Source: Tubiluchus corallicola (lineage: Eukaryota > Priapulida > Priapulimorpha > Priapulimorphida > Tubiluchidae). From it: a stretch of DNA of 64,000 nucleotides. A model generated the notes under the pieces. It saw only the letters and a list, made by a program, of their open reading frames with translations. It did not search any database and was not told the DNA's origin. Every line of letters starts with the position of its first letter. The first letter of the stretch is position 1. Positions 6,941 to 63,204 of this stretch are shown piece by piece. Position numbers and translations under genes: made by a program. The stretch spans positions 238,501 through 302,500 of the forward strand of contig JAQGDQ010000141.1 of NCBI GenBank assembly GCA_030141605.1, in the 5' to 3' direction.

Positions 6941-9900
6941 GTGAGTGTAGGATAGTAATAAGTTATAATAGTGCATGGTCTTATTCAATTTGAATGGATT
7001 TTGATAAAAATGTGGGCTACACCAAATGCTATCACTTACTGCTTGCACAATAGAGTTGAGGAACATTAATATTCAACAATTGGGGAAAGTACAGTGGGTT
7101 GAAACCAAACTTGATTCGTTTCTCAGTGCAAAACCAAATTTAAGTACTTGTTATATGAGGTTCTGGTCATAAAGATCTGCAGCCAGAGTTGAAAGAAACA
7201 GAGCATTCTATTTAAGCTATTATTATTTTATATGTGTAATGATATTCGTTTGCTCAAAGATGACCAACATTTGTGGCAGAAACACTGCAAAGCTGTGAAT
7301 TTACTGTAAATTTGAATAAAACAGTCTTTATAGAATACTTCTAAGACATTTAAATTATATAGTTATTTGCGTTATGACCTAAGGATTTGTAATAACACGT
7401 CTTGCAGTGCGTTATATTTATTAGTATTTTAACGTAAACAATGCCAGCGTACAATAGACAAACTAATCTGATTTTGTTGGCAAATAAGCATTTTGTTGAT
7501 ACGGTAAAACAAGCAGATTTGCTTTCAGTTTTGCTTTTTTGTCGAAGCTGCATGAAATTATTGATTTGCCAGAATCTTGTGACGACATTCTGTATATTAT
7601 TTGTCATATTCCATATTTTGTGTTTAGGAAAAAATCGCTGAGGTTGAGGAGCATAAAATTCAGACATGGCGACAAAAATTGCCAAACAGCATGCGAAGTC
7701 TTGTTAGCATCGACGTAGAAGAAAGGTAATTTATGTTGAAAATTTTATTTTTTTTCATTTACATTTTGATCAGATTATGTTTTTCACCCAGAAAGTTTAC
7801 ATTAGACGAATTCTTTTTACAAATAGTTCATTCTTGTTTGCAGTTTATTTGATGCGGTTCGATTGTTATCGGAGATGACGGTTCACAGGTTGCCTGTGAT
7901 TGATCGGTCAAACGGCAACTGCCTACACATCTTGACCCACAAAAGGATTCTCCGTTTTCTCTACCTCTATGTAAGCTCATTTGTATTGTCACGGGTTTCA
8001 CTGAAATATTTGATCGTTTTAGTTTAATTTCACTGTTAGCATTAACCCTTTTTGCACTTTTGTTTTTACTTCATTACTACCTGATATTGTAAACCATGTT
8101 GTATACTTGTGTTTGTAGATGCAAGATTTGCCTGAACCGTCCTTTATGGGAAAAACACTGGAGGAACTTGGTGTTGGAACTTTTGAAAACATGGCCACTG
8201 TAAGTGATAAGCAGGCTTCAAAAACTTGACAACTTTAAGACATACTGTTATTCAGAGTAATTTATTGTAGTACAGGTAGTGGTCTACTTGTGCCCTGTAA
8301 TTGGTTCTGGTGACTGTAAAATGAATTGAACATAAGACAGACCAGTATATTCAAGTCATGCGCCCGTACACACAGGACACTGGGTGTGCGCACTAAGTAT
8401 AGCGGCGCCTGTGATTAATTTATCGAAACAGATAGCAATTTAAAGTTAATTTGTTTCAAAAATAGATGGAAATGTGAGTGATAGGTGATTTTGCATGGTT
8501 AATAGAATTACGGTCGGGTCGTAAAGTCAAACAGTCTTAAGTCGCGTAGGCTGTAAGTCGGATGACCACCTGTACTGACACTTCATTCATTTTCTGTTTC
8601 TTCATCTGTTGAATTTGTTAATTGTACATTCTTATCACAATACATATGCTTTCGTGTATTCTTTTTCAGGCCACCTATGATACGACCGTAATTGAGGCAT
8701 TGCAAAAATTTGTTGAGAGGCGAGTTTCTGCGCTGCCGGTAGTCGATTCCGATGGGCGTGTAATTGATGTTTATGCCAAATTTGATGTAATAGTAAGTCT
8801 TAAAATGCAATAGCTAGTAACATTTTTAATGTATGAGAAAGAATAATTTGCAACTTAATTTGTAAATCGTCTATAAGTAGCTTAAAATTTGTTTATAAGA
8901 TGTCAATTTTAATGAATATATTTACTTTTTTCTAGAACTTGGCAGCTGAAAAAAGTTACAGCAATTTAGACGTGACAATTAGAGAAGCTCTAGAGAGACG
9001 ACTGAGCAAACAAGAAGGTGTCCACACATGTCAAAAGACGGACCCCTTTAAACATATCATCGAAACTATTGTAAAAGCTGAGGTAATTTTAATATGGAAG
9101 TAAATACATTCCTGTTGTATTGTATTGTATTGTATTGTATTGTATTGTATTGTATTGTATTGTATTGTATTGTATTGTATTGTATTGTATTGTATTGTAT
9201 TGTATTGTATTGTATTGTATTGTATTGTATTGTATTGTATTGTATTGTATTGTATTGTATTGTATTGTATTGTATTGTATTGTATTGTATTGTATTGTAT
9301 TGTATTGTATTGTATTGTATTGTATTGTATTGTATTGTATTGTATTGTATTGTATTGTATTGTATTATATTATATTATATTATATTATATTATATTATAT
9401 TATATTATATTATATTATATTATATTATATTATATTATATTATATTATATTATATTATATTATATTATATTATATTATATTATATTATATTATATTATAT
9501 TATATTATATTATATTATATTATATTATATTATATTATATTATATTATATTATATTATATTATATTATATTATATTATATTATATTATATTATATTATAT
9601 TATATTGCTGTGAAGGCATGACTATAAAAATTTACACCTAGAAAATTGGATGTGCCATACACACTTATTGCAGGTCTTGTTTCAATATTTACATGTGCCA
9701 GTCTAATGGACAACATTTGTTACAGGTACACAGGCTAATTATTGTTGACAAAGAAGGCCATCTTCAAGGAGTGTTGTCACTTTCTGACATACTGCGGCAA
9801 CTCATCCTAAAACCCATGGATGATGAGGCAAAGAAAGGTAACACAGACACTGGCTAATCGTCATGGCAACAGCATGCCCTCAATAGCAACTTAGTTTCTT

Positions 9901-18300: not shown

Positions 18301-21300
18301 AAATAACAAATTATGTAGTGAAACACAATTTTTTTATGTTAGAAAGAGACACGTTCTCAACACTATTAAACAATATGACAGTGGGGCTACCAATGTCTTG
18401 TAAGGTGCAACTTGTAAGACATCAGAATTTTCGCAACATAAGACACTGTTTTTGAGTTGTAGGAAAACTTTTTATTTTTCTAGAGTATAAATTGCATTTT
18501 TTGAGTTAGGCGAAGTAAATAACATGTATTTTGATTCAACGGTCCATAATTTTAATTTGAGTTCGGCGAAATTTTGAGTTAAGCGATGTTCTTTGTGGAA
18601 AAAGCGAAGTATTTCATCCGTTCCGCTGAAATTCTTTGAGTTAAGTGAAAATTTGAGTTATGCGAATTTGAGTAACGTGGAGTTTACTGTATCCAATGTG
18701 TAGAAACACAGATGTTTATATCCTCTTTCTATTTCAGTTAATATCATTTTTAAAATCTAGCTTACCTTTGGTCTATAATTACAGGTGAACACAAGAATGA
18801 TCCAGCGGATTGAAACATCATGTCTCATTATTTACCATTATTGAAAAGTGTTTGAATAAAATAATTAAGATTTAATGGAAAGTTTTAAATTATATAAACC
18901 AGAACATAACGTCCAACTGGCACGTCTCTTTCTCCTCTACTCTTTTTCCTACTCTTCACCACCCATTCATTCATTCTCTCATTCTTTTTCATTGAGATGC
19001 CCATTTAGTGGTCTCCCACTGTGAATGCAGCAAAATGCATTATCTGCTTATTTTAAAATTAAATTTTACAGACAAATATTTTTGCTGGGTTCACAAAAAT
19101 ATGATACAGATCACACAAGATGAAGTTACTATTAACAGTTTGGGTAAACTACTACATCAAGCGTTACACTTAAATTTCCACTAACCCTTTGCTGATATTC
19201 CTGCGGAACTGCTTTTCCTGGATGCGTTGTTTGCCTGGAGAACCGTTGTGTTGGCAAATCAACGGAAGTACAGTTTGAAAGTTCTCGTTGTACGTTTCAA
19301 TGGCCTGCACAAAAGCAAAAAATTCCTAAATAACTTAATTAAATCCAGAGGTAGTTGAAAATGAAAGAGGTTGAGAATGGAATGGGTTTCTAATTAAATC
19401 CAGTGGCAGTTGAAAATGAAAGAGGTTGAGAATGGAATGGGTTTCTTATTTAACAATGTGTTTCTGAGAATCGACAATTCAACAAGTTTATCACAACATA
19501 GATAACACATATAATTATTACACACATACGTACAAACAATTACTGAGAATGAAGTCATATATAATATGAAATGATAATAAGAAATTAAAGTTAACAAAAT
19601 ATATTCTAAGTAGAAATAATTGTATCTATGTTAGCTTCTAGAAATGAAGATATTTATAGCATTTGTAACAACAACAAAAAACATAACTCAGTCTTTTCCA
19701 AGAATTTCAATAACTCGCAAGTTCAATTAGTGTCAAATAACTTGCAATTTCTTGCCAACAGTAACTTGCACAGTAGTTCAAGAAAATTTGTGACAGAAAA
19801 CATGCTAGTCTGTGCACCAGCAAAATAACATCATCAAGTATTTTGTGCAATTTATTTGCTACTTATCTTCGCTAATTAATGAATAATTAATGACAGCATC
19901 AATTAAATAAATCTTAAGACTTGAAGTTGTGCAAAATCTTACCTGATCCAAGGACGAGTCATTAACTTTAAAAACGTCGTCCAGCGTTGAAATCTCTAGT
20001 AGTAATTTGTCAATCTGGAGACGATAATTTATTGCTTGCCTGCAAAAAAATGCACGATTTATATGATAATAGAATCATATACATGGCAGGATGTAACCAT
20101 GAACTGATTAATGTTGCTTAATGTTTCTTACTTGGTGAAACAAAGTCAAAATCAAACTAGACCAACACTATAAGAAGAGTTCAGTGACAAAGCGGTTTGC
20201 TTTAATTTTGGCTACTAACTTGGAACTTTCATAGACTCCAATTTCCAAAAAATACTTAATGTACATCTACGCCACAGGACCCAAATACCTGTGAAAAAAA
20301 TTTGAATTTAACTCAAGCCGCAGAAGGGTAGTTGAGCGACAAAGGGAAAACTGACCGATGTTCACTGTCCTTGACCTTTTGACCCAAGGTGACTCTAGGT
20401 ACCATCGTTTTGGAGTTATTCACCATCGTAGCACCGAAATAATAATAATAAGCGGTTGATTTCCAATAAGATTCTGCTATATGCAGAATCTTAAATATGA
20501 TACTAACCTGTACCAGGCCGGGAATTTGCTGTAGAGAGACTGCATTGAACTGTTACAATATGCAGAATCTTAAATATGATACTAACCTGTACCAGGCCGT
20601 GAACTTCCTGTAGAGAGACTGCGTTGAACTGTTACAATATGCTGAATCTTAAATATGATACTAACCTGTACCAGGCCGTGAATTTGCTGTAGAGAGACTG
20701 CATTGAACTGTTAGGACATGCAGAATCTTAAATATGATACTAACCTGTACCAGGCCGTGAACTTCCTGTAGAGAGACTGCGTTGAACTGTTACAATATGC
20801 AGAATCTTAAATATGATACTAACCTGTACCAGGCCGTGAACTTGCTGTAGAGAGACTGCATTGAACTGTTACGACATGCAGAATCTTAAATATGATACTA
20901 ACCTGTACCAGGCCGTGAACTTGCTGTAGAGAGACTACGTTGAACTGTTACAATATGCAGAATCTTAAATATGATACTAACCTGTACCAGGCCGTGAACT
21001 TGCTGTAGAGAGACTGTGTTGAACTATTACAATATGCAGAATCTTAAATATGATACTAACCTGTACCAGGCCGTGAACTTGCTGTAGAGAGACTGTGTTG
21101 AACTATTACAATATGCAGAATCTTAAATATGATACTAACCTGTACCAGGCCGTGAACTTGCTGTAGAGAGACTGCGTTGAACTGTTACAATATGGAGAAT
21201 CTTAAATATGATACTAACCTGTACCAGGCCGTGAACTTGCAGTAGAGAGACTGCGTTGAACTGTTACAATATGCAGAATCTTAAATATGATACTAACCTG

Positions 21301-24300
21301 TACCAGGTCGTGAACTTGCAGTAGAGAGACTGCGTTGAACTGTTACAATATGGAGAATCTTAAATATGATACTAACCTGTACCAGGCCGTGAACTTGCTG
21401 TAGAGAGACTGCGTTGAACTGTTACATACGTTCTCCAAAATCACCGGTATGTCTTTAGCAAACTTGACGATTCGATTTCTGCACAAACAGAATCAAGCAA
21501 TACATCATCACTCATTTTACAGATATTTTGAAACATATTAATTGCATTCAAAATTAATTTGTTTTCATGACCTAAAAATTGACATGAAAAGGATGTAACA
21601 ACAAATTCTCGAGAAATCATTAAAATCAAAATAAGTAAAATAACAAACAAACAAACAAACATGTTAAGTCAAGTACTGTATCCATACCGCACACCATACA
21701 CAGCCAAAAGTCAACAGAAGCAACAAAGAAAAAACAAAGCAAGAAATTGACAAAAGTTCAAAGAAATTACCATGGATTCACTATGAAAAATGAATAAGTT
21801 TACACATAAGTTTAAAAAATGAGAGACCCACATTGGTTTTTGTATCTCTCTTCCAGTTTCTGTAATTGTGGTCAGTGATTCTATTTTCTATTTCTGTGTT
21901 TTTTCTTGTGTTCATTTGCTGAGCCTCAATACGTCATTATTTGCTTCAATACATGATTGTACCTCTTTAAAGTGTGCTATTTTTATTGTAAATAAAATAA
22001 AAAATAGAACTAATGTCCTTGTGCGATTTTCCCCCTTTCTCTATTTTGTGACCTACGATAAACAGCAGTAGCGGCTGGAAACAATGTCCTTTTCAATGTT
22101 TTAACTATAGATTCTTTAATATAGTTTAGCTTAGTTTGCACATAGCAACAGAAATTCACGTACACAGTGTCTTATATAACTTCTTCATGCCTCATTGTAC
22201 GTGCTTCTTTAAACGAAGCCGAAGGCTAAGTGACGATTGTATGTGCTTAGCAACAGGACTGATTAGTAAGCTGAGAGACCATCAGGAAAATCACTTCTGG
22301 GCATATTCAAGTACAATATTAACCTGTGTATTTATCCTGAGAGGTGTACTACATATACGTGTACAGATGCATTACCGATGTAGTTACTTATTGGTTCATC
22401 ATATTATTTTGAGGCATTATCTTTAATAATCTGCCACAAGCTTTAATACAATAAGTAGGTTCTGCTAATCAGCTTAATGGCTACCAGGAGTCGGTGTTTT
22501 TATGTTTGCGTACAACACGACTTTAAATAAGCTTTGATTTGACTTCTGTTCTGGGCAGATGACAATAAAACAGCAACTAGCCAAAAACGCACAGCGAAAT
22601 TTCAATGAAATCTGTATCATAAAATAAAGTACACAATAATAATAAAATTGGACAGGACACATATTTTTACACTTTGGCTGTACCAGGACCAATAAAAAAA
22701 TTAACCTGTCTTTGCACCTACGCAGCTTCAACTAAATCTGCTGCTAATAATATTAACAAAGGTTTTGTTACAAGAAGGTTTTGAAGAAACGGTCGCAGAC
22801 TTACTTTTCATATTGGTGAATACATTCTTTTGCATGCGAAATATCTGCAAAAACAGATTTATGTAAAAAGCATGTCACGCATGTCATACAAAAGTACCTA
22901 AGAGCTACAAATTTTAATTACTAGTGAAGAAAACTACAGATTACTGACATCGGTGTATCAATAATGCAGCAAAAAATACATGATTCTAATAAATCAATCA
23001 AATGAGGGGAAGAAACAAAATAAAGTTACTGTCACCCTACTGTCAAGTGTACAGGCAGCGCTGCCACCCTACTGTCATCATGTGTACAGGTGGTACTGTC
23101 ACCCTACTGTCATCATGTGTACAGGTGGTACTGTCACCCTACTGTCATGTGTACAGGTGGTACTGTCACCCTACTGTCATCATGTGTACAGGTGGTACTG
23201 TCACCCTACTGTCATCATGTGTACAGGTGGTACTGTCACCCTACTGTCATCATGTGTACAGGTGGTACTGCCACCCTACTGTCATCATGTGTACAGGTGG
23301 TACTGTCACCCTACTGTCATCATGTGTACAGGCAGCGCTGCCACCCTACTGTCATCATGTGTACAGGCAGCGCTGCCACCCTACTGTCATCATGTGTACA
23401 GGTGGTACTGTCACCCTACTGTCATCATGTGTACAGGTGGTACTGTCACCCTACTGTCATCATGTGTACAGGCAGCGCTGCCACCCTACTGTCATCATGT
23501 GTACAGGTGGTACTGCCACCCTACTGTCATCATGTGTACAGGTGGTACTGTCACCCTACTGTCATCATGTGTACAGGCAGCGCTGCCACCCTACTGTCAT
23601 CATGTGTACAGGTGGTACTGTCACCCTACTGTCATCATGTGTACATGCAGCGCTGCCACCCTACTGTCATGTGTACATGCAGCGCTGCCACCCTACTGTC
23701 ATGTGTACATGCAGCGCTGCCACCCTACTGTCATCATGTGTACAGGTGGTGCTGGGATAGCAGCTTACGTGATGAAGCATGAGAGTACTATTCCCAAGAC
23801 TTGGGTTCAAATCCACAACTAGTCAACAATTTTCCAGTGTTTATTTTCTCCAAATAATTATCCGCAATAGGCAATAATTGGTAAAATAAACTGCAATGGT
23901 TTATAAAATTCCTGATAATCACGGTCCTAATTAATTAACAAAATAAAGTTATCTTACTGATCCTCGCATGATGTTCTAAAAAACGTTCATGAAAGTTCTT
24001 TGTCAATTCCTTTGATTCCCGCAACATGATATCCAATTCTGATACGCTAAAATAAAATAGAAAAATAAGCACCATCCTCAGATACACTCTTTTACCACTA
24101 ATGAGCCAAGTATTCTGAGAAACACAATGCGGAATAAAGTTGATTTTCAACAAAAAAGTTTGTATCGGTTATATAAAGTGTATTATTTTAAAAAAAATTA
24201 TAATTTTGGCACTGTAACAAGATTTATTCACCATCCTGAGACACATTCTTTTAACACTAATGAGCCAAGTATTGTGAGAAACACAATGTGGAATGAAGTT

Positions 24301-27300
24301 ATTAGTGCACAACTATTACGGCACAATACTAATACTACTGCAGTTCACTAGTCATTGTTAATGCTGAATGTTGCTTTACTTTAACACTGACGTGAATAGT
24401 CTATTTCAAATGGTTTTCTAGACACAATGACACCTCAAGTTAACACAAATAAAACCGAACAACTACATATGTGATGTAAAATTTTTTAATCGTTATATTT
24501 CAGCTTTTCTTGCGGGAAGCCTCCATAAGATGTAAAAAACTTTTTAATAACCCATAATGTATCATTTAAAATATAAATGTTGATTGTGATATACAATCTA
24601 TACAATAGTCTATTTGTCTATTTCAGCAATAATAATCTAAGGTCTGCCTGAATGCACCTCTTATGAAACTGCACTACACCTTCTCCATTTCAAAGTCAAA
24701 TCAAACTGCGGCTCAATTTGACTTGATTACAGCTCAATTTAATTTAATTATGGCTCAATTTGACTTCATTACAGCTCAATTTGACTTGATTATGGCTCAA
24801 TTTTATTTGACTAGGACTCAACTTCATTTGACTATGGCCCAATTTGATTTGACCATGGCTCAACTGGAAATGGAAATGGTTTCATTATGTGCACAGAAAA
24901 ACCCAAGAATACTGAACCACTATACTCAACAATATTCTAATATTTTTAATAAAATAAAATTATACGAGCAAAACGCATTTCCTACAACAAGCATTGAATA
25001 TCAACACAATTGGTACATTTAAACTATGGCCACTGACACCTTACAATCTAAAGTACTTGCAAATTTAAAAGCTCACCTTGTCCTAACTGCTGATGGCACC
25101 TCCTGTCCTATCCAGTTCTCTTCCAATACATTCCTCTCTAACACAGCATTCTTAACCCGGCTCACTTTGTTATTTATCTCTTTCACCATTTTCACTAGCT
25201 GAAGAAGGAACATGAAGAAATGATAAATTTTAAAACACAAAAACTTTTACTAGAATGCAAAAACATTTATAAATCCGCTCACTTTGAATGTGTACATCAC
25301 TGTGAAGATCACCATGTTTCGCATCTTTAGGACGAGTGCACAAGAATAAGCCTTTTCACAGGCTATGCACACGCACAGTTGCTGTAAGTCAGAGGCAAGG
25401 ACTACTATACAACAGGACGTGCACGCTTAGATCTCTGATTCGGCTAGCGGAGGCGATCAATACTTGTATGAACGTAATCTATAAATAGTGCGCTTTAGAG
25501 AGTAGTGATCTTGGAAATGAAAGAATGGGTGGATCGGTAGATAGCGAGTATTATTTTTCATTTAATTGGTTCTTTACATTACGGGAGAAAAGTACCAATT
25601 GTTTATTTTATGTATCAAAGGAAATTAGTGTTCATTTTTACTTCTTAAATAGCGCACTACTTTAGGCGTAAGTGTGTTTTACCGGAAGTAGTGCTTTGTC
25701 ATTGTTAATGTGTCATTGTTCAAAGTCAAGTGAAGCGTTGTTTTCGTGCTTGCGTTTGTTTCTTTGTGGATTATTTTCAAAATTTCTCGTGGATTTTATA
25801 CATCTGTGCTCAGCAGCATGCCTAACAAGGTAACTATGACACGGAGAACAAGTGTCGTGTGTTCAGACTGCCAAGAGATCATGTAGAAAAACAGAAATGG
25901 CTAAGTGTTCTTCCCCCACGCGAAGGCTTTGTTGTTGAACCAACGAAATTTTTCATTTGCGAAAAGCATTGGCCATCGGATACTCAAATAGTCAAAATTC
26001 CAGGTGGTCACACCAGGCCAGTGGATCCACCCAGTATTTTCAACGTTCCAACATCATGCTTGCCCACTCCAAAGCCACCACGTCGCCATCCAAAAACTGA
26101 GGACCAGCAGCTGAATTATTTCTTTAAAAAGGATAAAATAACTTCTCTCAATGAATTCACTCCTGAGAAAGACCAGCATAAGACATATCAGAACCTCATT
26201 ATGTCTCGCACACAAGACAAATTTGTGTGCATGTTCATGGAAGAGGACCACAGTCAATGTTATATGTCAATTATTGTTCACAATAAGCCTACCTTGTGTT
26301 CCCCTCTTACTCTGTATGCTTTCAAAAACGGGATCAGTGTGCCATTAAGTAAAATCCTCAGTCCAAACAATGGGCTGTCCTCTTACTCACAATTTTTTGC
26401 GGTTGTGAATTCTGTTGTCAACCACATTCATCATGTTGATGATATTGTCAACAAAGTGACAAAGTCTCTTGAACTTGAACTAGCTCAAAATCGAGAACAA
26501 TCTCCTAGTGTTAATGCTAAAGCCAAGAAGCTCAAATTTCTAACACGACAGCTTCGACTATTATGTGATGGACACAGACACATCATCCGAAATCCAGTTG
26601 CACACATGCAATGGGATTGATTTCGAGGATGCCAAAATTATGGAGATTTGTGTTGACGAGACTCTTTCCAAAACTGAACTGAACGCGTGTGCATATGTCG
26701 CAGGTTGGTTGGAGAGTAAGCGCCAAAATGACATTTCTTTTCCCGAGGATGAGCCTCTCCTTTCTGAGGAAATGAAAATGTTCATTGAAGAAGTGTCTAG
26801 GGGAGGTCTTACAGTGCCCCACACATTCACGTTCGAATTCGTAACAACTGGCTTGTGTTTTGTGAAGAAGTCAACTCACACAGTCTGCTGCCGCAACAAG
26901 CTCATGAACATCCTCTCCATAATCAATGCCTACTTTGATTTTGGAGAATTTTCAAGAAATGCTCTGAGACGCCTGGCGAATGTACTGCGAAGGATCACCA
27001 GCAGAACTCAGCCCTTTACCAGACCACCATTAAGAAGGCGCGACTAGCCGACTAATTGTCGCAAACGTCTCTGCAAAATGGTGAGTGCAATAATTTCATG
27101 TATTCTAATTTACACAGAGGAACCTATGAATGAGTTTATATAGTCCTGACAAAATGGTGCAGTCTGTTTATTCTCTATAGAAAGTGACAGGTAATCTTCG
27201 GGACACAATGAGTTGCAGATATGGTGTGTTTTTTTAGGAGGAGGGGATATCATAGGTACCACTGTTTTTAAATTACTAGACGAATGAGAAATATGTTCTA

Positions 27301-33400: not shown

Positions 33401-35504
33401 CTTAAATGTAAACAGCAAATTTGGCCACGTTTGGCAACAAAATCTGTCACACTGCTCAAACAATACTACGTAAATTTTTGCAAAGTTTACAGTAACTTTA
33501 GAGTAATTCTCATTGAAGACTAATTCTGTGAAAGTTTTATTGCTCAATAATTTTTGGCAACATCAGTAGACGGCAGTTTAGGAAATACAGGTATGAGCTA
33601 AAGATTCTTTGCTTCGGTTAAGAAGTGTCATCTATCACAAGCTTTCTTTAGCTATGCCAGTGCTTATGCCTTAAACACATGATATGAATTTGATGTGCAC
33701 AGAGGCAAACAGACCTAAAACATTTGCAGTATAATTATGATTCTTGTGTTCCACTAAACTTTTAGTTCTAATTTTAGTTCTATGTAGTTCTACTAAGCTT
33801 TCAGTTCTACATAGGTCTACTAAGCTTTGAGTTCTACTTTTAGTTCTATGTAGTTCTATTAAGCTTTTAGGTCTACTTTTAATACTACTAAACTTTTAGT
33901 TCTAGTTTTAGTTGTATGTAGTTCTATTAAGCTTTCAGTTCTACATAGCTCTACTAAACTTTTAGTTCTATATACTTCTACTAAGCTTTCAGTTCTACAT
34001 AGTTCTACTAAGTTTTTACTTCTACTTTTAGTTCTATGTAGTTCTACTAAGCTTTCAGTTCTACATAGTTCTACCAAGCTTTTAGTTTTATGTGGTTCTA
34101 CTAAGCTTTACTTCTACTTTTAGTTCTATGTAGTTCTACTAAGCTTTTACTTCTACTTTTAGTTCTATGTAGTTCACTAAGATTTTACTTCTACTTTTAG
34201 TTCTATGTAGTTCTACTAAGCTTTCAGTTCTACATAGTTCTACTAAGCTTTTAGTTCTATGTAGTTCTACTAAGCTTTCAGTTCTACATAGTTCTACTAA
34301 GTTTTTACTTCTACTTTTAGTTCTATGTAGTTCTACTAAGCTAAGATTTTTTTTACAGATGCAGGTCAGCATTTTAAGTCATTTTACTTACCCATCTTCC
34401 TTATCACAGTAAGCTTTGATAAATACGCCCGATGATGCACAGAAAACATCGATTGGTGTCTTTTTAATTATATCATTGACCTCATTAAAAAAGCGATCAA
34501 ACCTCCAACAACTTTTAGGATCGCTTTCTAGCAGACCAGCAAGAAGAGGTATCATCATTTTTTTCAAACCACTATAAAAAGTAATAAAGTTATAGGTAAG
34601 CAATACTTATTACCAGCTCTAAAAAGGTGATAATGATAATATTTATTTTGCATAGCATCTAAATCTACAGACAGCACAAATGAAAATATTCAAAGATGCT
34701 TCAAAAGGATATCTAAAATCACCAGGACAGACTTAAAAAAAGGTTTACAAGATTAAACAGTAATTCTACTAAATTTCATAAAATTACAATAAGTAAATAC
34801 ATAAAAACACACAGATTCACAAAATACAGGCATATAACGACAAATCAAAATTACTTCAAAGATTGTATGCTATCTTAAATAAGTATGTTTTAAACTGTAT
34901 TTCAAAAGTGTTAGTGTTCGAGACTGTGGATAGGCAGGCTGTCTCATAAATTTGGTCCTGCAACAGCAAATGACCTGTCATCCACAGTGGAACAATCGGT
35001 GACAGGAACAAGGTATTATTAAGTTTAATGAAAAATTTGTTTTCACATATATCTTGCTGCTGTACATATAAACGTCCTATTAAAAAGGAAAGAATCTTAA
35101 TTTGCAAACTATAATTGTCAATCTCCATTCTTTTGACATATTATTTCACGTTGTGCAAGGAATAAGAATATAAATTCAATTCAACTTTATTTTCTCAATA
35201 ATAACATAAATTTGACATGATTATTTGACAATTTCAATATAACTCAGAAGGAGCAGCAAAAGACCTGTTGATCACTTGAACAGCTGCCCCTTATTAAAAA
35301 TACAAGTTCACTTAAAGGTAAAGAAATTTTTTAGATGATTATTATAGAAAAAACGTTACAGTATTAAAAATGAATTTGGTATTAGATTATATAATGAGTA
35401 GCAGAAATGGTATTGTGTATAACGAATATTAGTAACGATGATGACGATGGTAGTAGCGATGACGAAAAAATGATGATAATGAGGTAATGATAATCATAAC
35501 AGTA

Positions 35505-35537
<33 letters not shown>

Positions 35538-38500
35538 ATAATAATAATAATAGTAATAAATTAATAATAATAATAATAAAATAATAATAATAATAAATTA
35601 ATAATAATATAGAAATCATAGTTAATAGAAATCATAATAAAAATTATAGCAATTATTGTAATGGCAAAATATTTCTAGTCTAGTCAGATTTTATAGTAGT
35701 ATGGAAAAATAGTAAACGACAATTACTTGAAAATTGAATACAAGGTTACATTTTGATAATGATATTATTTAAATTATTCGTGTAAATTTATAATAAAAAC
35801 AGAAACAGTAGTGGAGCATAAATCATAAATCTATGATAAAAACAGAAACACAAAAAATAAAGCCATCACAGAATATATTTGATTTGAAATTTGCTGGAAA
35901 GAATAGTTAAACAGCTCTTTCACAGGCAAGCAAACAGTCCGTATTTCGGTCTGTATTTCGACATTTCAATTATCTTTGAAATGTCTTAATGCGTGTTAAA
36001 ATATTAAGACGTGTTGTGACTTTACCATAACATGTAAAATCGTTTACACTGGTTATCTTGCGTTTAATTCAACTATAAAAAATTTTGTTTAAAAATCATT
36101 TGTTTTAATCTATTATGACACTAGCACCTTAAATGGTAAAAAAGTGAATGCTGTCAAATATGCAAGTGATTTACCAATTTTAACTAACTGTACCAATTTG
36201 ACACAATGTGAAAGTGCAACTAAATCAGTCCAAAGTTCATCAAATTTATAATCTACACAAAGCTTATCTTAAGTAAACAAGTTCTACTTGTAGAAAAATC
36301 CAACCTACCAAGATCAATCTACGGTGTTATACACGATAATAAAGACGCGGCAAAACAACGATACTCACTCAGATAACTGGATAAAAGTTGGCAAATTTTT
36401 ACTCCAAATTATCTCTCCATCGTCTACCTCTTGAATGCCACTTATTACACCACTTTTCTTTTTACTGGTAATGTGATGCCTGTAGAAAAAGAGAGGCTGT
36501 AACAACCACATATTTACGGGGCATTCAACAAACAAGTTTTCTCGCCAAGTAACTCGCAAGTATGGTCAGACTAGAGAGTAAAAACTGCTGTGAGTTACTC
36601 TCCAACAATAAGTGCGAATTGACACTCCCTTCTCTATTTGCTACAAGAAAAATCGAGAGCAACTCGCCGAGGCATTCAAACTAGGGAGCAACTCGTAACA
36701 ACTGCTGGAAAGCTTGCAATAACTTGCAACTTGCAAAGTAGTTCACACTTGCGGCTTTGCTGCTAGACTGAAAACTCACAACAGAAAACTCGCTAGTCTA
36801 AACTGTTAGTGATAAACTGAAAACGTTCTAATAAACTAAATTAAAAAGTCATTAAAAAAAATTCTGATCTGCCATCACTGTCACAGCTAGAATCCAAACA
36901 GAGAATCCAGCAAAATATTTTAAACATCAATGCTCACTACAAAAAAAATCCACATATAAAAAATCCATATTTATACTTATAATTGCATTTTATATACTAT
37001 CATAGCATGTGATGGGTTTCAAAACAGAACCTTAACACATAATAAACACTGCACATTTTCGTTATTCAATTATTAACACACACTATCTAGAAAACGCTTA
37101 CATGGTCAGTTTATCAGCATACACTATCTAGAAAGCACTTACATGGCCAGTTTATTAACAAACACTATCTAGAAAGCACTTACATGGTCAGTTTATTAAC
37201 AAACACTATCTAGAAAGCACTTACATGGCCAGTTTATCAGTATACACTATCTAGAAAGCACTTACATGGCCAGTTTATTAACAAACACTATCTAGAAAGC
37301 ACTTACATGATCAGTTTATTAACAAACACTATCTAGAAAGCACTTACATGATCAGTTTATTAACAAACACTATCTAGAAAGCAGTTACATGGTCAGTTTA
37401 TCAGCACACACTATCTAGAAAGCACTTACATGATCAGTTTATTAACAAACACTATCTAGAAAGCACTTACATGGCCAGTTTATCAGCATACACTATCTAG
37501 AAAGCACTTACATGATCAGTTTATTAACAAACACTATCTAGAAAGCACTTACAAGGTCAGTTTATTAACAAACACTATCTAGAAAACACTTACAAGGTCA
37601 GTTTATTAACAAACACTATCTAGAAAACACTTACATGGTCAGTTTATTAGCACGACCACCAAACGGACGAAATGGAAGATGGCCAGTAGCAGCATGATAC
37701 AAGGTCACTCCGATACTCCACAAATCCACTTCCACTCCAAACGCCTTCTCCACGGAACCTCTGAACAAAACTCGCTCATACATGTCAGGGTGCTAAAAAT
37801 TATTTTAATTATTCAACAGCACATTACGTTTAAAGGAAGACAAGATGATTTTTCATATACTAACCTATTTTCAAGTCCGATAAAAAGTATACATTTTAAC
37901 ACAATTAATACTGCAAAAGCATTTCTCATAATTAAATTATACATTAAAAACCTAATTAACGGCGAGCGAGCCGAACTATTGATGATATCACAAACTAATC
38001 TAGTTTTCAACAGCAAAAATATTCCATAAGCATGTTGCACGTGTTTGCGAAAGCGAAAATTGAAGTACATTGCTACTGTAAGACATCCAGTGTGTTGTAC
38101 TAAAACTAGGCAAGTTTAAGATAAAAATTCAAATTTCGAACTTACTGCTGTTCTCAAGCATGAGCTCACGTGTGCAGTTCGTCACAAGAGGTACAGCACT
38201 TGTTTTTTGTGCAATGCGTTTTTGAAGTGCATGCACTAGTTTCTAACTATCGAATGGCGAAATGTAGGTAACAGGGAAGAACTAATGGCGTGAATGCGAA
38301 ATTGTGTTTGTGTGGTAATAATTCATTCGAGTCAGTCATTCTTTGAAAAAATAGTACGTTTTGTTTCAATAATTTAACAAGTAGTTTGTTTTGACCTACT
38401 GTTTGAGATTGGGCCCAGTTTTGCTTTAACTACTGTACAATTTTTCGCATACTTATGTTTCTGGCCACCTAACTGTACTTGCTAATTAGTGAACAACACT

Positions 38501-41500
38501 AATTAGCTGACAGAATAAAGAAATAATCAGATATATTTGAGAAATATCATCCAATTACTTTCATTGCAGCTAAGTTAAGTGGTCTGTCTCGATAAGGCAA
38601 GTGTAGTTTTTCAGTATATTATTAACATCATTTTATTTCGAATATACATTACATAAGTAATTCACAAAAAAGTATTATCAGTCGAGATTACTTGCACGAT
38701 TAGTAATAAAACAACATAGCAATAGTAAAAAGGATTAATGGGCCTAGTAGTTCTCACAAAATCTATAAACAGTACAATTTCTTGCAAATTAACATGTAAC
38801 AAGGTAATCTATAATTGATCACAGCAGTTACGCTGCAATCGCGATCAATTACTAAAACGTTTTAATAATTATGTTTAAAAAATTAAAATCATAACATTCT
38901 AAGCATTCGATGCAATCTGTAGCCATATTAACAATTACCTGTCGGTTTCCTATCAAAGCCTATTTCTTCACTGATCTCCTTGTATTATATTGAATATGAA
39001 TATTATATGGTCCTTCACTGAATATTATATGGTCCATTTTCTAACTAATAACTACTACAGCTCAAAGTGCAACACGTATGTCATTGCTGACTTAATAGTA
39101 AACAAAGCTTAGTGTGTCACAAACTTAACAATAGTGTTACTACTTTGTCATATCAAGTAATGAAGTAGGAGTTTTGTTGTCCCGCAAAATCATTCTGACA
39201 CATTCGCGGACATGAAATTCAGGACATCATTGTAACTTACCAGGTATTCCTCGGTGCCGTGTAAACTCTCAAACCTCTCTTCATCTTGTAACTCTCTTGC
39301 AGTGCCGAAATCTGTCAGCTTGTACGTAGAACTACATAAACACAACTGACAGTTAGCGTTGACTAACAAAACAAGTAAATAAAACAAAAATAACAAATAA
39401 ATTCTCAAAACCTGCTTCTGGTTCCAGCAAAGTTTGCAAAGATTGGATGATAATTAGAAAAGGATGACTGGCATCAATGTACAGTGGATTTCAGAACACC
39501 CAGGCCGGCCACAAAAAAAATTTGTTTCTGTCTTACCACATGAACTCAAAAGATGTTAGTAAGGAGGGATGAAATTTTTTTTAACATTTTGTGAATGTTT
39601 AAAGCTGAATCCCGGAACATTTAAAATCAGTTGAAAACAAAGTTGTTTCCCACCGGTTAGCAGTAATTTGTTTTTTAGTTTTTTGTTTCGCCTTACTAAT
39701 TTATCGTACAATTATCTAATGTATAGGTTCTTTTTTGTACATTATAGATATTAATAGTATATTAAAACCACATTGAAGACATTTGATTTTGACCTTACGG
39801 CAGCAAAAAACATTTAAAAATATCACTTGAATATTCTCAACAAACCTGCCATCATGGTTGACAAAGCGTAAAATATTTCCCGGTTTCAGGTCCCTGTGAA
39901 CTATGCCTTTATCGCGTAAATGTTTCATTCCTGCAGCTGTAATAAAAAACATTTACAAACTTTTATTACGATGAATAAACTAAGACTAAAAAATGACAAT
40001 AAATATACAGTGTTCCCTCACTTATCCTGGGTGTTCGTTCCAAACCCACCCGCGATAAGTGAATTTCCACGAAGTAGGGACGCTATACTTGTTTAACACT
40101 TACATGTTTGTGTTGCATCGTAGGGCTTGAATAAATTCAGTTTCTAACGAAAATTTCACAAATAGCGTACAAGAAAACAAATTGCACGGTACCTGAGCCA
40201 ATCAGCGACTGAGATACAGAGCAGCGTTCTCTGGTTGGTCGCTTTAAATCAATCAACCAATCGTGTGTTGTGTACAATCTCACGTCGGCAAGTAGCATCT
40301 CAAGCGGGCACACGTACTAAATTTCGTTTTTGGTGTGTATTCACCCGCCGAATAAAGTCACTATTTACTGTAAATGGTATTTTTTTATGTTTTATAATAT
40401 TCTTTGAAAACCCGCGAAACAGCGAGTCCACGATAAACAAACTGTGAAGTAGCGAGGGAACACTGTATGCAAGAGCCAACCTCTAAAAATTAACAAGTTG
40501 TTTATTAATGTTGTAAATCTCACATGTTATATATAAGGCTATATATACTTTATAAATGGTAGACTGGTAGAACGTAGATTGGTGCAAGATGATTCAGAGT
40601 TTGAACATTGTCTAGAAGAAGCAAACGCATTTCAGATGCCTTGACAATAAGACTCTTATTTGCATTCTTATGTGCGCTGTCGCAACCAACAAACCAGCCA
40701 GAACTTTGAGAAAAAATTAACGTTAGCCATTTTGAGGATTTTCTAAAAAAACAATAGCTCACAAATTTCTGAAAAAAATGGCACTAAATGAAAACAGAAA
40801 AACTATTTAACAACATTCTGCACAAAATTCTAGTACTGAGGATTTCAAATGCCTGTAACTTGAGTTGATAGAATGCTCAGTCTTGAACAAATATGCAAAA
40901 CTTTAAAGGAAACGACAGTTCAATTAGCACGTTAAAGTAACTGGTGGACTTTGTGGCTTTCATAATGTATATACATTATATTACATTATTCAATATACAT
41001 TATGAAGCACTGCCCAGTTCTCAATACCTAACAATCATCGGTAACACCATGCAGCACTCTGTCGATTTCTGTGTTCTAAGTTAACGTGACTCTGAGCTCC
41101 ATTAATTGGGTCCTGTAGTGGTCCAAGTGACTTACTGAGTCTCTGTGCTGTTTGGAAGGTTTTAGGTTTCTCATATTGTGTTCCCTCTTGTGGTTGTGGA
41201 AAATGCAAAATTGTGTATAAAATGTGTATTACTCTTCTCACACATATTACACTGGTTTATTGTCCTAGTATGTAGAATTTGCTTGGTGCCAAAGTAATTG
41301 TTTGCTTATATTATTGGTACCTTTGCTTTAGTCTGATATATAAGGTACAATTTTAATGTTTTCTTTACATGAGAACTGCTTTCTACATTATTTCTAGTTG
41401 TAATCTGACAATTTGAATTTCGCTCTTGTGATTGCTTAACGATACAATTTATTTTATGCCTTGGGTAGTGGTGTCACAATTGTACTGATTGTTTGTTTTG

Positions 41501-48743: not shown

Positions 48744-48744
<1 letters not shown>
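48739..48744 (-). terminator. Poly(A) hexamer overlapping the GPCR stop codon
   Basis: On the minus strand the stop TGA and AATAAA share their A (TGAATAAA). If used, the 3' UTR would be only about 20 nt. Further AATAAA sites exist downstream, for example near 48055, so usage is uncertain. Confidence 0.35.

Positions 48745-63204
<14,460 letters not shown>

What the first reader, a model, noticed from the sequence alone, without database searches (positions are those of the whole stretch)
20481..21478. TBK1 minisatellite in which every 79-bp unit is a potential in-frame 14-codon micro-exon
The twelve-copy 79-bp array starts at the real end of exon 16 and repeats its last 42 nt with donor GTTAGT and an intronic segment ending AACAG or AATAG. 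Splicing from such an AACAG to the next GTTAGT would add 42 nt, keeping phase 2 at both sides: 14 residues like [14 protein letters not shown] per unit. Ten of eleven extra units stay open; one has a TAG. Several differences are silent (AGC/AGC, AAG/AAA). Directly adjacent units leave only 37 nt of intron, so at most spaced units could be used together. This could be a length-variable cassette in the TBK1 dimerisation coil, or just a neutral expansion.
Basis: partly seen in the sequence, partly recalled or inferred. Interest (0 to 1): 0.85.

Follow-up and report, generated by a model that had tools for sequence, protein, structure and literature searches.

The report
Minisatellite repeating a TBK1 splice donor
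In an animal immune-kinase gene (TBK1 type), the DNA across the end of one exon and its splice donor has been copied twelve times in a row; the copies look like neutral intronic passengers rather than extra mini-exons, but similar donor-spanning repeats recur elsewhere in this genome.

Summary
The array is real: 12 copies of 79 bp at 20479-21426 (minus strand), starting 50 nt before the end of an exon of a TBK1/IKK-epsilon-type gene. Each copy repeats the donor TACAG|GTTAGT; ten of eleven extra units read as 14 in-phase codons. I find no support for use as micro-exons. The exon-like part varies as much as the intron-like part (8/42 versus 6/37 columns), and 2 of 8 changes are silent, as under neutrality. 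Being in phase is what chance gives (2 of 7 AG spacings). Adjacent units leave 37-nt introns; the smallest of 41 myosin gaps is 88 nt. The same gene has a second donor-spanning minisatellite (14 x 41 bp, 37070-37649) with no open in-phase unit. Of 119 domain exons chosen without regard to repeats, 3 carry such an array and none an acceptor-spanning one (placement P=0.017; small sample). Most likely the first donor is used and the rest is inert intron. The closest precedent, a minisatellite providing multiple splice donors, is known to me by title and recall only. No transcripts were available. The interest lies in the recurrence of donor-seeded arrays and the natural test of donor choice.

The parts
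21377..21478 (-).
   Evidence: ORF with acceptor and donor; end of Pfam TBK1_CCD1, below cut-off
20479..21426 (-). 79-bp minisatellite, 12 copies, each with donor TACAG|GTTAGT
   Evidence: TRF, anchored units, matches in the own genome only at this locus
21298..21339 (-). unit 2, 42-nt exon-like segment, [14 protein letters not shown]
21219..21260 (-). unit 3, [14 protein letters not shown]
21140..21181 (-). unit 4, [14 protein letters not shown]
21061..21102 (-). unit 5, same peptide with ACA; AATAG acceptor-like end
20982..21023 (-). unit 6, same peptide with ACA; AATAG acceptor-like end
20903..20944 (-). unit 7, interrupted by TAG ([13 protein letters not shown])
20824..20865 (-). unit 8, [14 protein letters not shown]
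20745..20786 (-). unit 9, [14 protein letters not shown]
20666..20707 (-). unit 10, [14 protein letters not shown] with AAA
20587..20628 (-). unit 11, [14 protein letters not shown]
20508..20549 (-). unit 12, [14 protein letters not shown]; followed by the divergent array end
20467..20493 (.). perfect hairpin, 11-bp arms and 5-nt loop; the intronic end of the array lies in its loop
   Evidence: 0 of 3000 random positions reach 11 bp, but only 1 of 36 array ends has it
19943..20039 (-). next exon, joined to 21377 in the constitutive model ([32 protein letters not shown])
37635..37792 (-). kinase-domain exon of the same gene, ..GRANKLT AT|GTAAGT, the seed of the second array
37070..37649 (-). 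second donor-spanning minisatellite, 14 x 41 bp; GTAAGT intact in 12 of 14 copies; no open in-phase unit

Best explanation
A minisatellite was born by tandem duplication of a 79-bp segment that crosses the 3' end of a TBK1-type exon and its splice donor, and it grew to twelve copies by slippage or unequal exchange. The exon's own donor at 21377 stays the first donor that the transcription and splicing machinery meets, so exon definition joins it to 20039 and the other copies leave as intron. This is why the array is tolerated: the protein is unchanged as long as the first donor wins, whereas choosing a later donor without removing the piece between adds a stop after 11 codons. Shown: the array, donors, frames, unit variation and array 2. 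Inferred: use of the first donor and neutrality of the rest.
For: Array and donors. Variable columns 8/42 exon-like versus 6/37 intron-like, Fisher P=0.78; 2 of 8 changes silent against 0.21-0.27 expected. In-phase AG spacings 2 of 7. Shared variants (units 5/6, 9/11, 10/12) fit recent local duplications. Read-through beyond 21377 stops after [11 protein letters not shown]. Same gene: 14 x 41 bp array at 37070-37649 spanning another donor; read-through past its first donor stops at once and 0 of 12 in-phase AG-to-donor segments are open. Elsewhere: 3 of 119 domain exons (L038, L057, L070) with donor-spanning arrays, 0 acceptor-spanning. Smallest of 41 gaps between neighbouring myosin domain matches is 88 nt.
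Against: A 32-nt run across the donor is invariant in all 12 copies (P=0.007 under random column placement, chosen after looking), which could mean constraint on the donor; array 2 does not repeat this (2 of 14 donors altered). The unit acceptors score within the range of weak real ones (0.3-2.1 against 0.1-6.8), so splicing into a unit is not ruled out by sequence. Eight changes give little power to see selection. No transcript was seen.
Confidence: 0.78

Rival explanations
1. Micro-exon cassette: units are spliced in as 42-nt (14 residues) or 21-nt (7 residues) in-phase micro-exons, so that the TBK1 coil varies in length by two or one heptads.
For: In phase and open in 10 of 11 extra units (42 nt) and in the 9 of 11 that keep the CTCTCTACAG site (21 nt). 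Donors score in the top 1% of 1458 GTs and the 42-nt acceptors at the 82nd-94th percentile of 1298 AGs in the gene region outside both arrays (generic recalled matrix; the background includes some exon sequence). Location at the coil end. 14 = 2 heptads and 7 = 1 heptad (arithmetic).
Against: No sign of selection on the peptide; being in phase is at chance level; adjacent 42-nt units leave 37-nt introns and 21-nt units 58-nt, against 88 nt as the smallest of 41 gaps; array 2 repeats a donor with no open in-phase unit.
Confidence: 0.06
2. Regulatory decoy: extra donors sometimes capture U1 or are used, giving stop-containing mRNAs that tune TBK1 level, with strength depending on copy number.
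For: All 12 donors intact and equal in score; invariant 32-nt run across the donor; read-through past the first donor meets a stop.
Against: In array 2 donors are not specially preserved, 2 of 14 altered; no transcripts; passive intron explains the same facts.
Confidence: 0.1
3. Assembly or collapse artefact: the array is wrongly built or its copy number is wrong.
For: Long tandem arrays are error-prone in assemblies (general knowledge).
Against: Units carry distinct ordered variants, contig C1933 is 512,740 bases long, the query matched this locus only, and similar arrays occur at other exons.
Confidence: 0.03

Closest known systems
[quoted passage not shown] title seen in the reference list of PMC2915984; text not held; that it is the human 6-16/IFI6 gene and begins at an exon donor is recalled)
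   Same: A minisatellite whose units carry splice donors, in a gene of the interferon system
   Different: Here the unit is 79 bp, includes 50 nt of exon and an acceptor-like AG in phase; use of several donors in transcripts is claimed by that title, untested here
[quoted passage not shown] it cites a 24-bp AGGT repeat in fission yeast genes spanned by an intron)
   Same: Duplication of a segment carrying splice signals, one case crossing an intron-exon boundary
   Different: No new intron is shown here; the copies lie inside an existing intron on its donor side
About 150-bp repeated block at the 5' end of myostatin-2 intron 1 in Sparus aurata (PMC3045353, abstract and passages read)
   Same: Tandem block at the 5' end of an intron, one or two copies by allele, with an extra predicted acceptor in the two-copy allele
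   Different: One or two copies only; not described as including exon sequence in the parts I read
Tandem duplicated exon substitution events (PMC9741552, start of abstract in a listing and two passages)
   Same: Neighbouring exon-like copies in one gene
   Different: Those are exons chosen one for another, with expressed isoforms; here only an exon end is copied

Membership tests
Minisatellite | Head-to-tail units of tens of bp, many copies | tested here: met
   79 bp x 12, 95% matches
Minisatellite | Copy number varies between individuals | not testable with these tools
   one assembly only
Donor-repeating minisatellite | Every unit carries a consensus-like donor | tested here: met
   12 of 12 ACAGGTTAGT, score 4.9 each
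Donor-repeating minisatellite | Array begins in an exon and spans its own donor | tested here: met
   starts 50 nt before the exon end; the donor is inferred from frame and site, not from transcripts
Donor-repeating minisatellite | More than one donor copy used in transcripts | not testable with these tools
   no RNA data
Alternatively spliced micro-exon cassette | AG and GT flanks, length a multiple of 3, no stop | tested here: met
   10 of 11 extra units; but 2 of 7 AG spacings are in phase, as chance gives
Alternatively spliced micro-exon cassette | Flanking introns long enough to splice | tested here: inconclusive
   37 or 58 nt between neighbours, 116 nt if one unit is skipped (arithmetic); smallest of 41 myosin gaps 88 nt
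Alternatively spliced micro-exon cassette | Selection on the encoded peptide | tested here: not met
   8/42 versus 6/37 variable columns, 2 of 8 silent, one stop; low power
Alternatively spliced micro-exon cassette | Inclusion in mRNA | not testable with these tools
   no RNA data
TBK1/IKK-epsilon kinase gene | Kinase, ubiquitin-like and coiled-coil domains in order on one strand | tested here: met
   ULD and CCD1 matches lie below Pfam cut-offs; TBK1 and IKK-epsilon not told apart
Intron gain by tandem duplication | A new intron between two expressed copies | not tested
   needs transcripts

The most novel reading that the evidence does not exclude
In this genome splice donors are birthplaces of minisatellites: segments across exon-donor junctions duplicate and expand more often than other intronic DNA, giving a genome-wide class of arrays in which 5 to 30 copies of a donor follow the real one. 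Splicing must then keep choosing the first, with occasional use of copies (in TBK1, in steps of 7 or 14 coil residues).
Probability: 0.3. Interest if true: 0.75.

Novelty: new member of a known kind. Interest (0 to 1): 0.48.

Why it matters
A row of 12 (and, at another exon of the same gene, 14) near-identical donors behind the real one is a natural experiment on how splicing picks the first donor. If donor-spanning minisatellites form a class, as 3 of 119 sampled exons plus two in TBK1 suggest, they would be a source of copy-number variation at splice sites and of raw material for new exons and introns. For TBK1 itself nothing I saw shows a changed protein.

Tried and rejected
Micro-exon cassette as the main reading: set aside on variation, phase at chance, spacing and array 2. 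A hairpin as the general seed of arrays: the 11-bp hairpin at 20467-20493 is unusual, but only 1 of 36 array ends has one. A donor motif as proof of a class: CAGGTAAGT three times at 21-51 bp gives 365 matches against 29 for the reversed string, and those 29 lie on 5 contigs. But single copies already differ 5468 to 2250, the listing of the 365 was cut (about 100 rows, 11 contigs), three of those contigs (C507, C557, C676) share one unit family, and of 11 edges fetched only 2 (L077, L078) sit at an evident exon end by eye. AAGGTAAGT gives 85 against 37, on 9 contigs (its single-copy ratio was not measured); the acceptor motif TTTTTGCAG 84 against 80, on 4 contigs. So the motif evidence is suggestive only. 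CAGGTGAGT was asked six times and never answered. The 27 second-batch kinase exons and 50 myosin exons had no donor-spanning array; they are counted in the 119. Domain matches not fetched: 71 of 140 kinase rows (those I took were mainly short, exon-like ones), 43 of 93 myosin rows and all 52 DEAD-box rows. The 30 loci L007-L036 that came (mostly long uninterrupted frames) were not analysed for arrays. PDB search of the coil fragments gave no TBK1 match, only hits I take for chance. Rfam gave no match at gathering score in the window. No structure prediction was run. The organism was not identified. The ten paper searches listed nothing that I recognised from titles and abstract starts as a genome-wide class of donor-spanning minisatellites; the closest precedent came from a reference list. 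An earthworm metallothionein paper with intronic minisatellites (PMC12783039, passages only) did not describe donor-spanning units in those passages.
Full report
What is there. On the minus strand the gene reads as a TBK1/IKK-epsilon-type kinase. Exon-sized matches to the TBK1 kinase domain run from about 43.2 to 34.4 kb, a TBK1 ubiquitin-like match lies near 32.7 kb, and the exons at 21478-21377 and 20039-19943 match the end of Pfam TBK1_CCD1 (E=0.017 for the pair alone, 0.004 with two more exons). The two Pfam matches are below the curated cut-offs, but they are collinear. TRF finds 12.0 copies of 79 bp at 20479-21426. Anchored on ACAGGTTAGT, the 12 donors are exactly 79 bp apart. The first copy is the real exon end: the array begins 50 nt upstream of the donor, at TGTAACAG.

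Is it a row of micro-exons? Geometrically it can be: 42 nt from AACAG/AATAG to the next donor, in phase, open in 10 of 11 extra units. A second AG, CTCTCTACAG, gives 21 nt, also in phase and open, in 9 of 11 extra units, with 58 nt instead of 37 nt of intron. These would add 14 or 7 residues, two or one heptads of a coil (arithmetic). But the units hold AGs at seven distances from the donor (one of them in one unit only) and two of the seven are multiples of three, which is what chance gives. Variation is as dense in the exon-like as in the intron-like part (8/42 versus 6/37 columns, Fisher P=0.78; the divergent tail of unit 12 was left out). Two of eight exon-like changes are silent against 21-27% expected, and one is a stop. 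That is neutral behaviour, though eight changes give little power. One result points the other way: 32 consecutive columns across the donor never vary (P=0.007 under random column placement, chosen after looking).

Could neighbours be spliced together? In nine myosin loci of the same genome the smallest of 41 gaps between consecutive domain matches is 88 nt (these are gaps of domain matches, so true introns may be somewhat shorter, or longer exons may be missed). Introns of 37 nt look implausible and 58 nt doubtful; skipping one unit gives 116 nt. Reading through the first donor adds [11 protein letters not shown] and a stop. So later-donor use without internal splicing is damaging, and tolerance requires that the first donor nearly always wins. 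By a generic recalled matrix all 12 donors score alike (4.9, top 1% of 1458 GTs of the gene region outside both arrays) and the 42-nt unit acceptors score 0.3-2.1, against 0.1-6.8 for nine exons of the gene. Sequence alone does not exclude leaky use.

The second array. At 37070-37649 the same gene has 14 copies of 41 bp that begin in the last 15 nt of a kinase-domain exon and repeat its donor GTAAGT (intact in 12 of 14). AG-to-donor spacings there are 36, 26 and 22 nt; only 36 is in phase (12 units) and 0 of 12 are open. Going past the first donor meets a stop at once. A gene with two arrays that share the donor but not the cassette argues that the donor junction, not the peptide, is the common factor.

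Is this a class in this genome? In the own genome (343.5 Mb, 2344 contigs) a 220-base query from array 1 matched this locus only. I took exons by domain match, without regard to repeats: 69 of 140 kinase rows (mainly the short exon-like ones) and 50 of 93 myosin rows, in 151 kb. They contain 13 arrays (period 16 or more, 3.5 copies or more, 70% matches or more). Three begin inside an exon end and run over its donor: L038 (71 bp x 5), L057 (25 bp, about 30 copies within the stretch held) and L070 (45 bp, about 21 copies within the stretch held). None spans an acceptor. Random placement of the same arrays, allowing up to 50 nt of exon, gives 0.53 donor-spanning arrays on average and 3 or more in 1.65% of 4000 trials; the same null expects 0.54 acceptor-spanning arrays, so their absence means little. 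All three came from the first 42 exons; the other 77 gave none. Donor positions in these loci are inferred, not transcript-supported. Two further examples found by motif sit at evident exon ends (L077, L078).

Motif counts. CAGGTAAGT three times at 21-51 bp: 365 matches against 29 for the reversed string, the latter on 5 contigs. Single copies: 5468 against 2250. AAGGTAAGT: 85 against 37, on 9 contigs, single-copy ratio not measured. Acceptor-like TTTTTGCAG: 84 against 80, on 4 contigs. So the strongest donor string is over-represented in arrays beyond its single-copy excess, and the acceptor string is not over-represented. However, counts of matches overweight large arrays, the list of 365 was cut at about 100 rows (11 contigs), and 9 of 11 fetched edges showed no evident coding exon at the array start (by eye; non-coding exons cannot be seen this way, and L086 has a possible exon end about 100 nt upstream). 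I treat this as suggestive.

Origin. The intronic end of array 1 lies in the loop of a perfect 11-bp hairpin (20467-20493), reached by 0 of 3000 random positions, but no other of 36 array ends has one. It may have helped this duplication start; it is not general. Shared variants (5/6, 9/11, 10/12) point to recent local re-duplication, partly in two-unit steps.

Comparison. The ten paper searches listed nothing I recognised as a genome-wide class of such arrays (titles and abstract starts). [quoted passage not shown] paper not held; further details are recall). Boundary-crossing tandem duplication is also known as a route to new introns (PMC4974935, abstract and Introduction). The TBK1 array works like these in anatomy; whether more than one donor is used here is untested.

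Verdict. The cassette reading is possible in geometry and not supported by the tests of function I could run, with the donor invariance as the one result that leans towards some constraint. Best reading: a donor-spanning minisatellite carried passively in the intron, one of several in this genome.

Noticed in passing
window 37070-37649: Second donor-spanning minisatellite of the same gene, 14 x 41 bp, at the end of a kinase-domain exon; not reported in this finding.
   Followed up: yes
L038 1118-1469, L057 1086-2025, L070 1087-2007 (gene-strand coordinates): Donor-spanning minisatellites at three other kinase-domain exons of the same genome, two with an inferred donor GTACGT.
   Followed up: partly
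window 33748-34342 and exon end 34392: An array (best period 66 bp) starts 50 nt downstream of another TBK1 donor without including it; arrays may favour the 5' ends of introns.
   Followed up: partly
window 20467-20493 and 38481-38507: Two perfect 11-bp hairpins with 5-nt loops; the first sits exactly at the intronic end of array 1.
   Followed up: partly
window 25826-27047 (+): Two overlapping ORFs (264 and 167 aa) inside the TBK1 gene region on the other strand that look by eye like a THAP/P-element-type transposase; not tested.
   Followed up: no
window 48744-49532 (-): 262-aa ORF that looks by eye like the membrane part of an adhesion-type receptor; not tested.
   Followed up: no
window 9115-9607, 52994-53209, 58175-58803: Long TTGTA array (98.6 copies), pure (TG)108, and a 40-bp array with about 16 copies.
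   Followed up: no
G000: 34 of 52 DEAD-box matches and many of the best kinase matches lie in long uninterrupted frames, and six kinase matches have the same score and one inner TAG each; intronless or transposed copies seem common in this genome, or the assembly holds foreign contigs.
   Followed up: no
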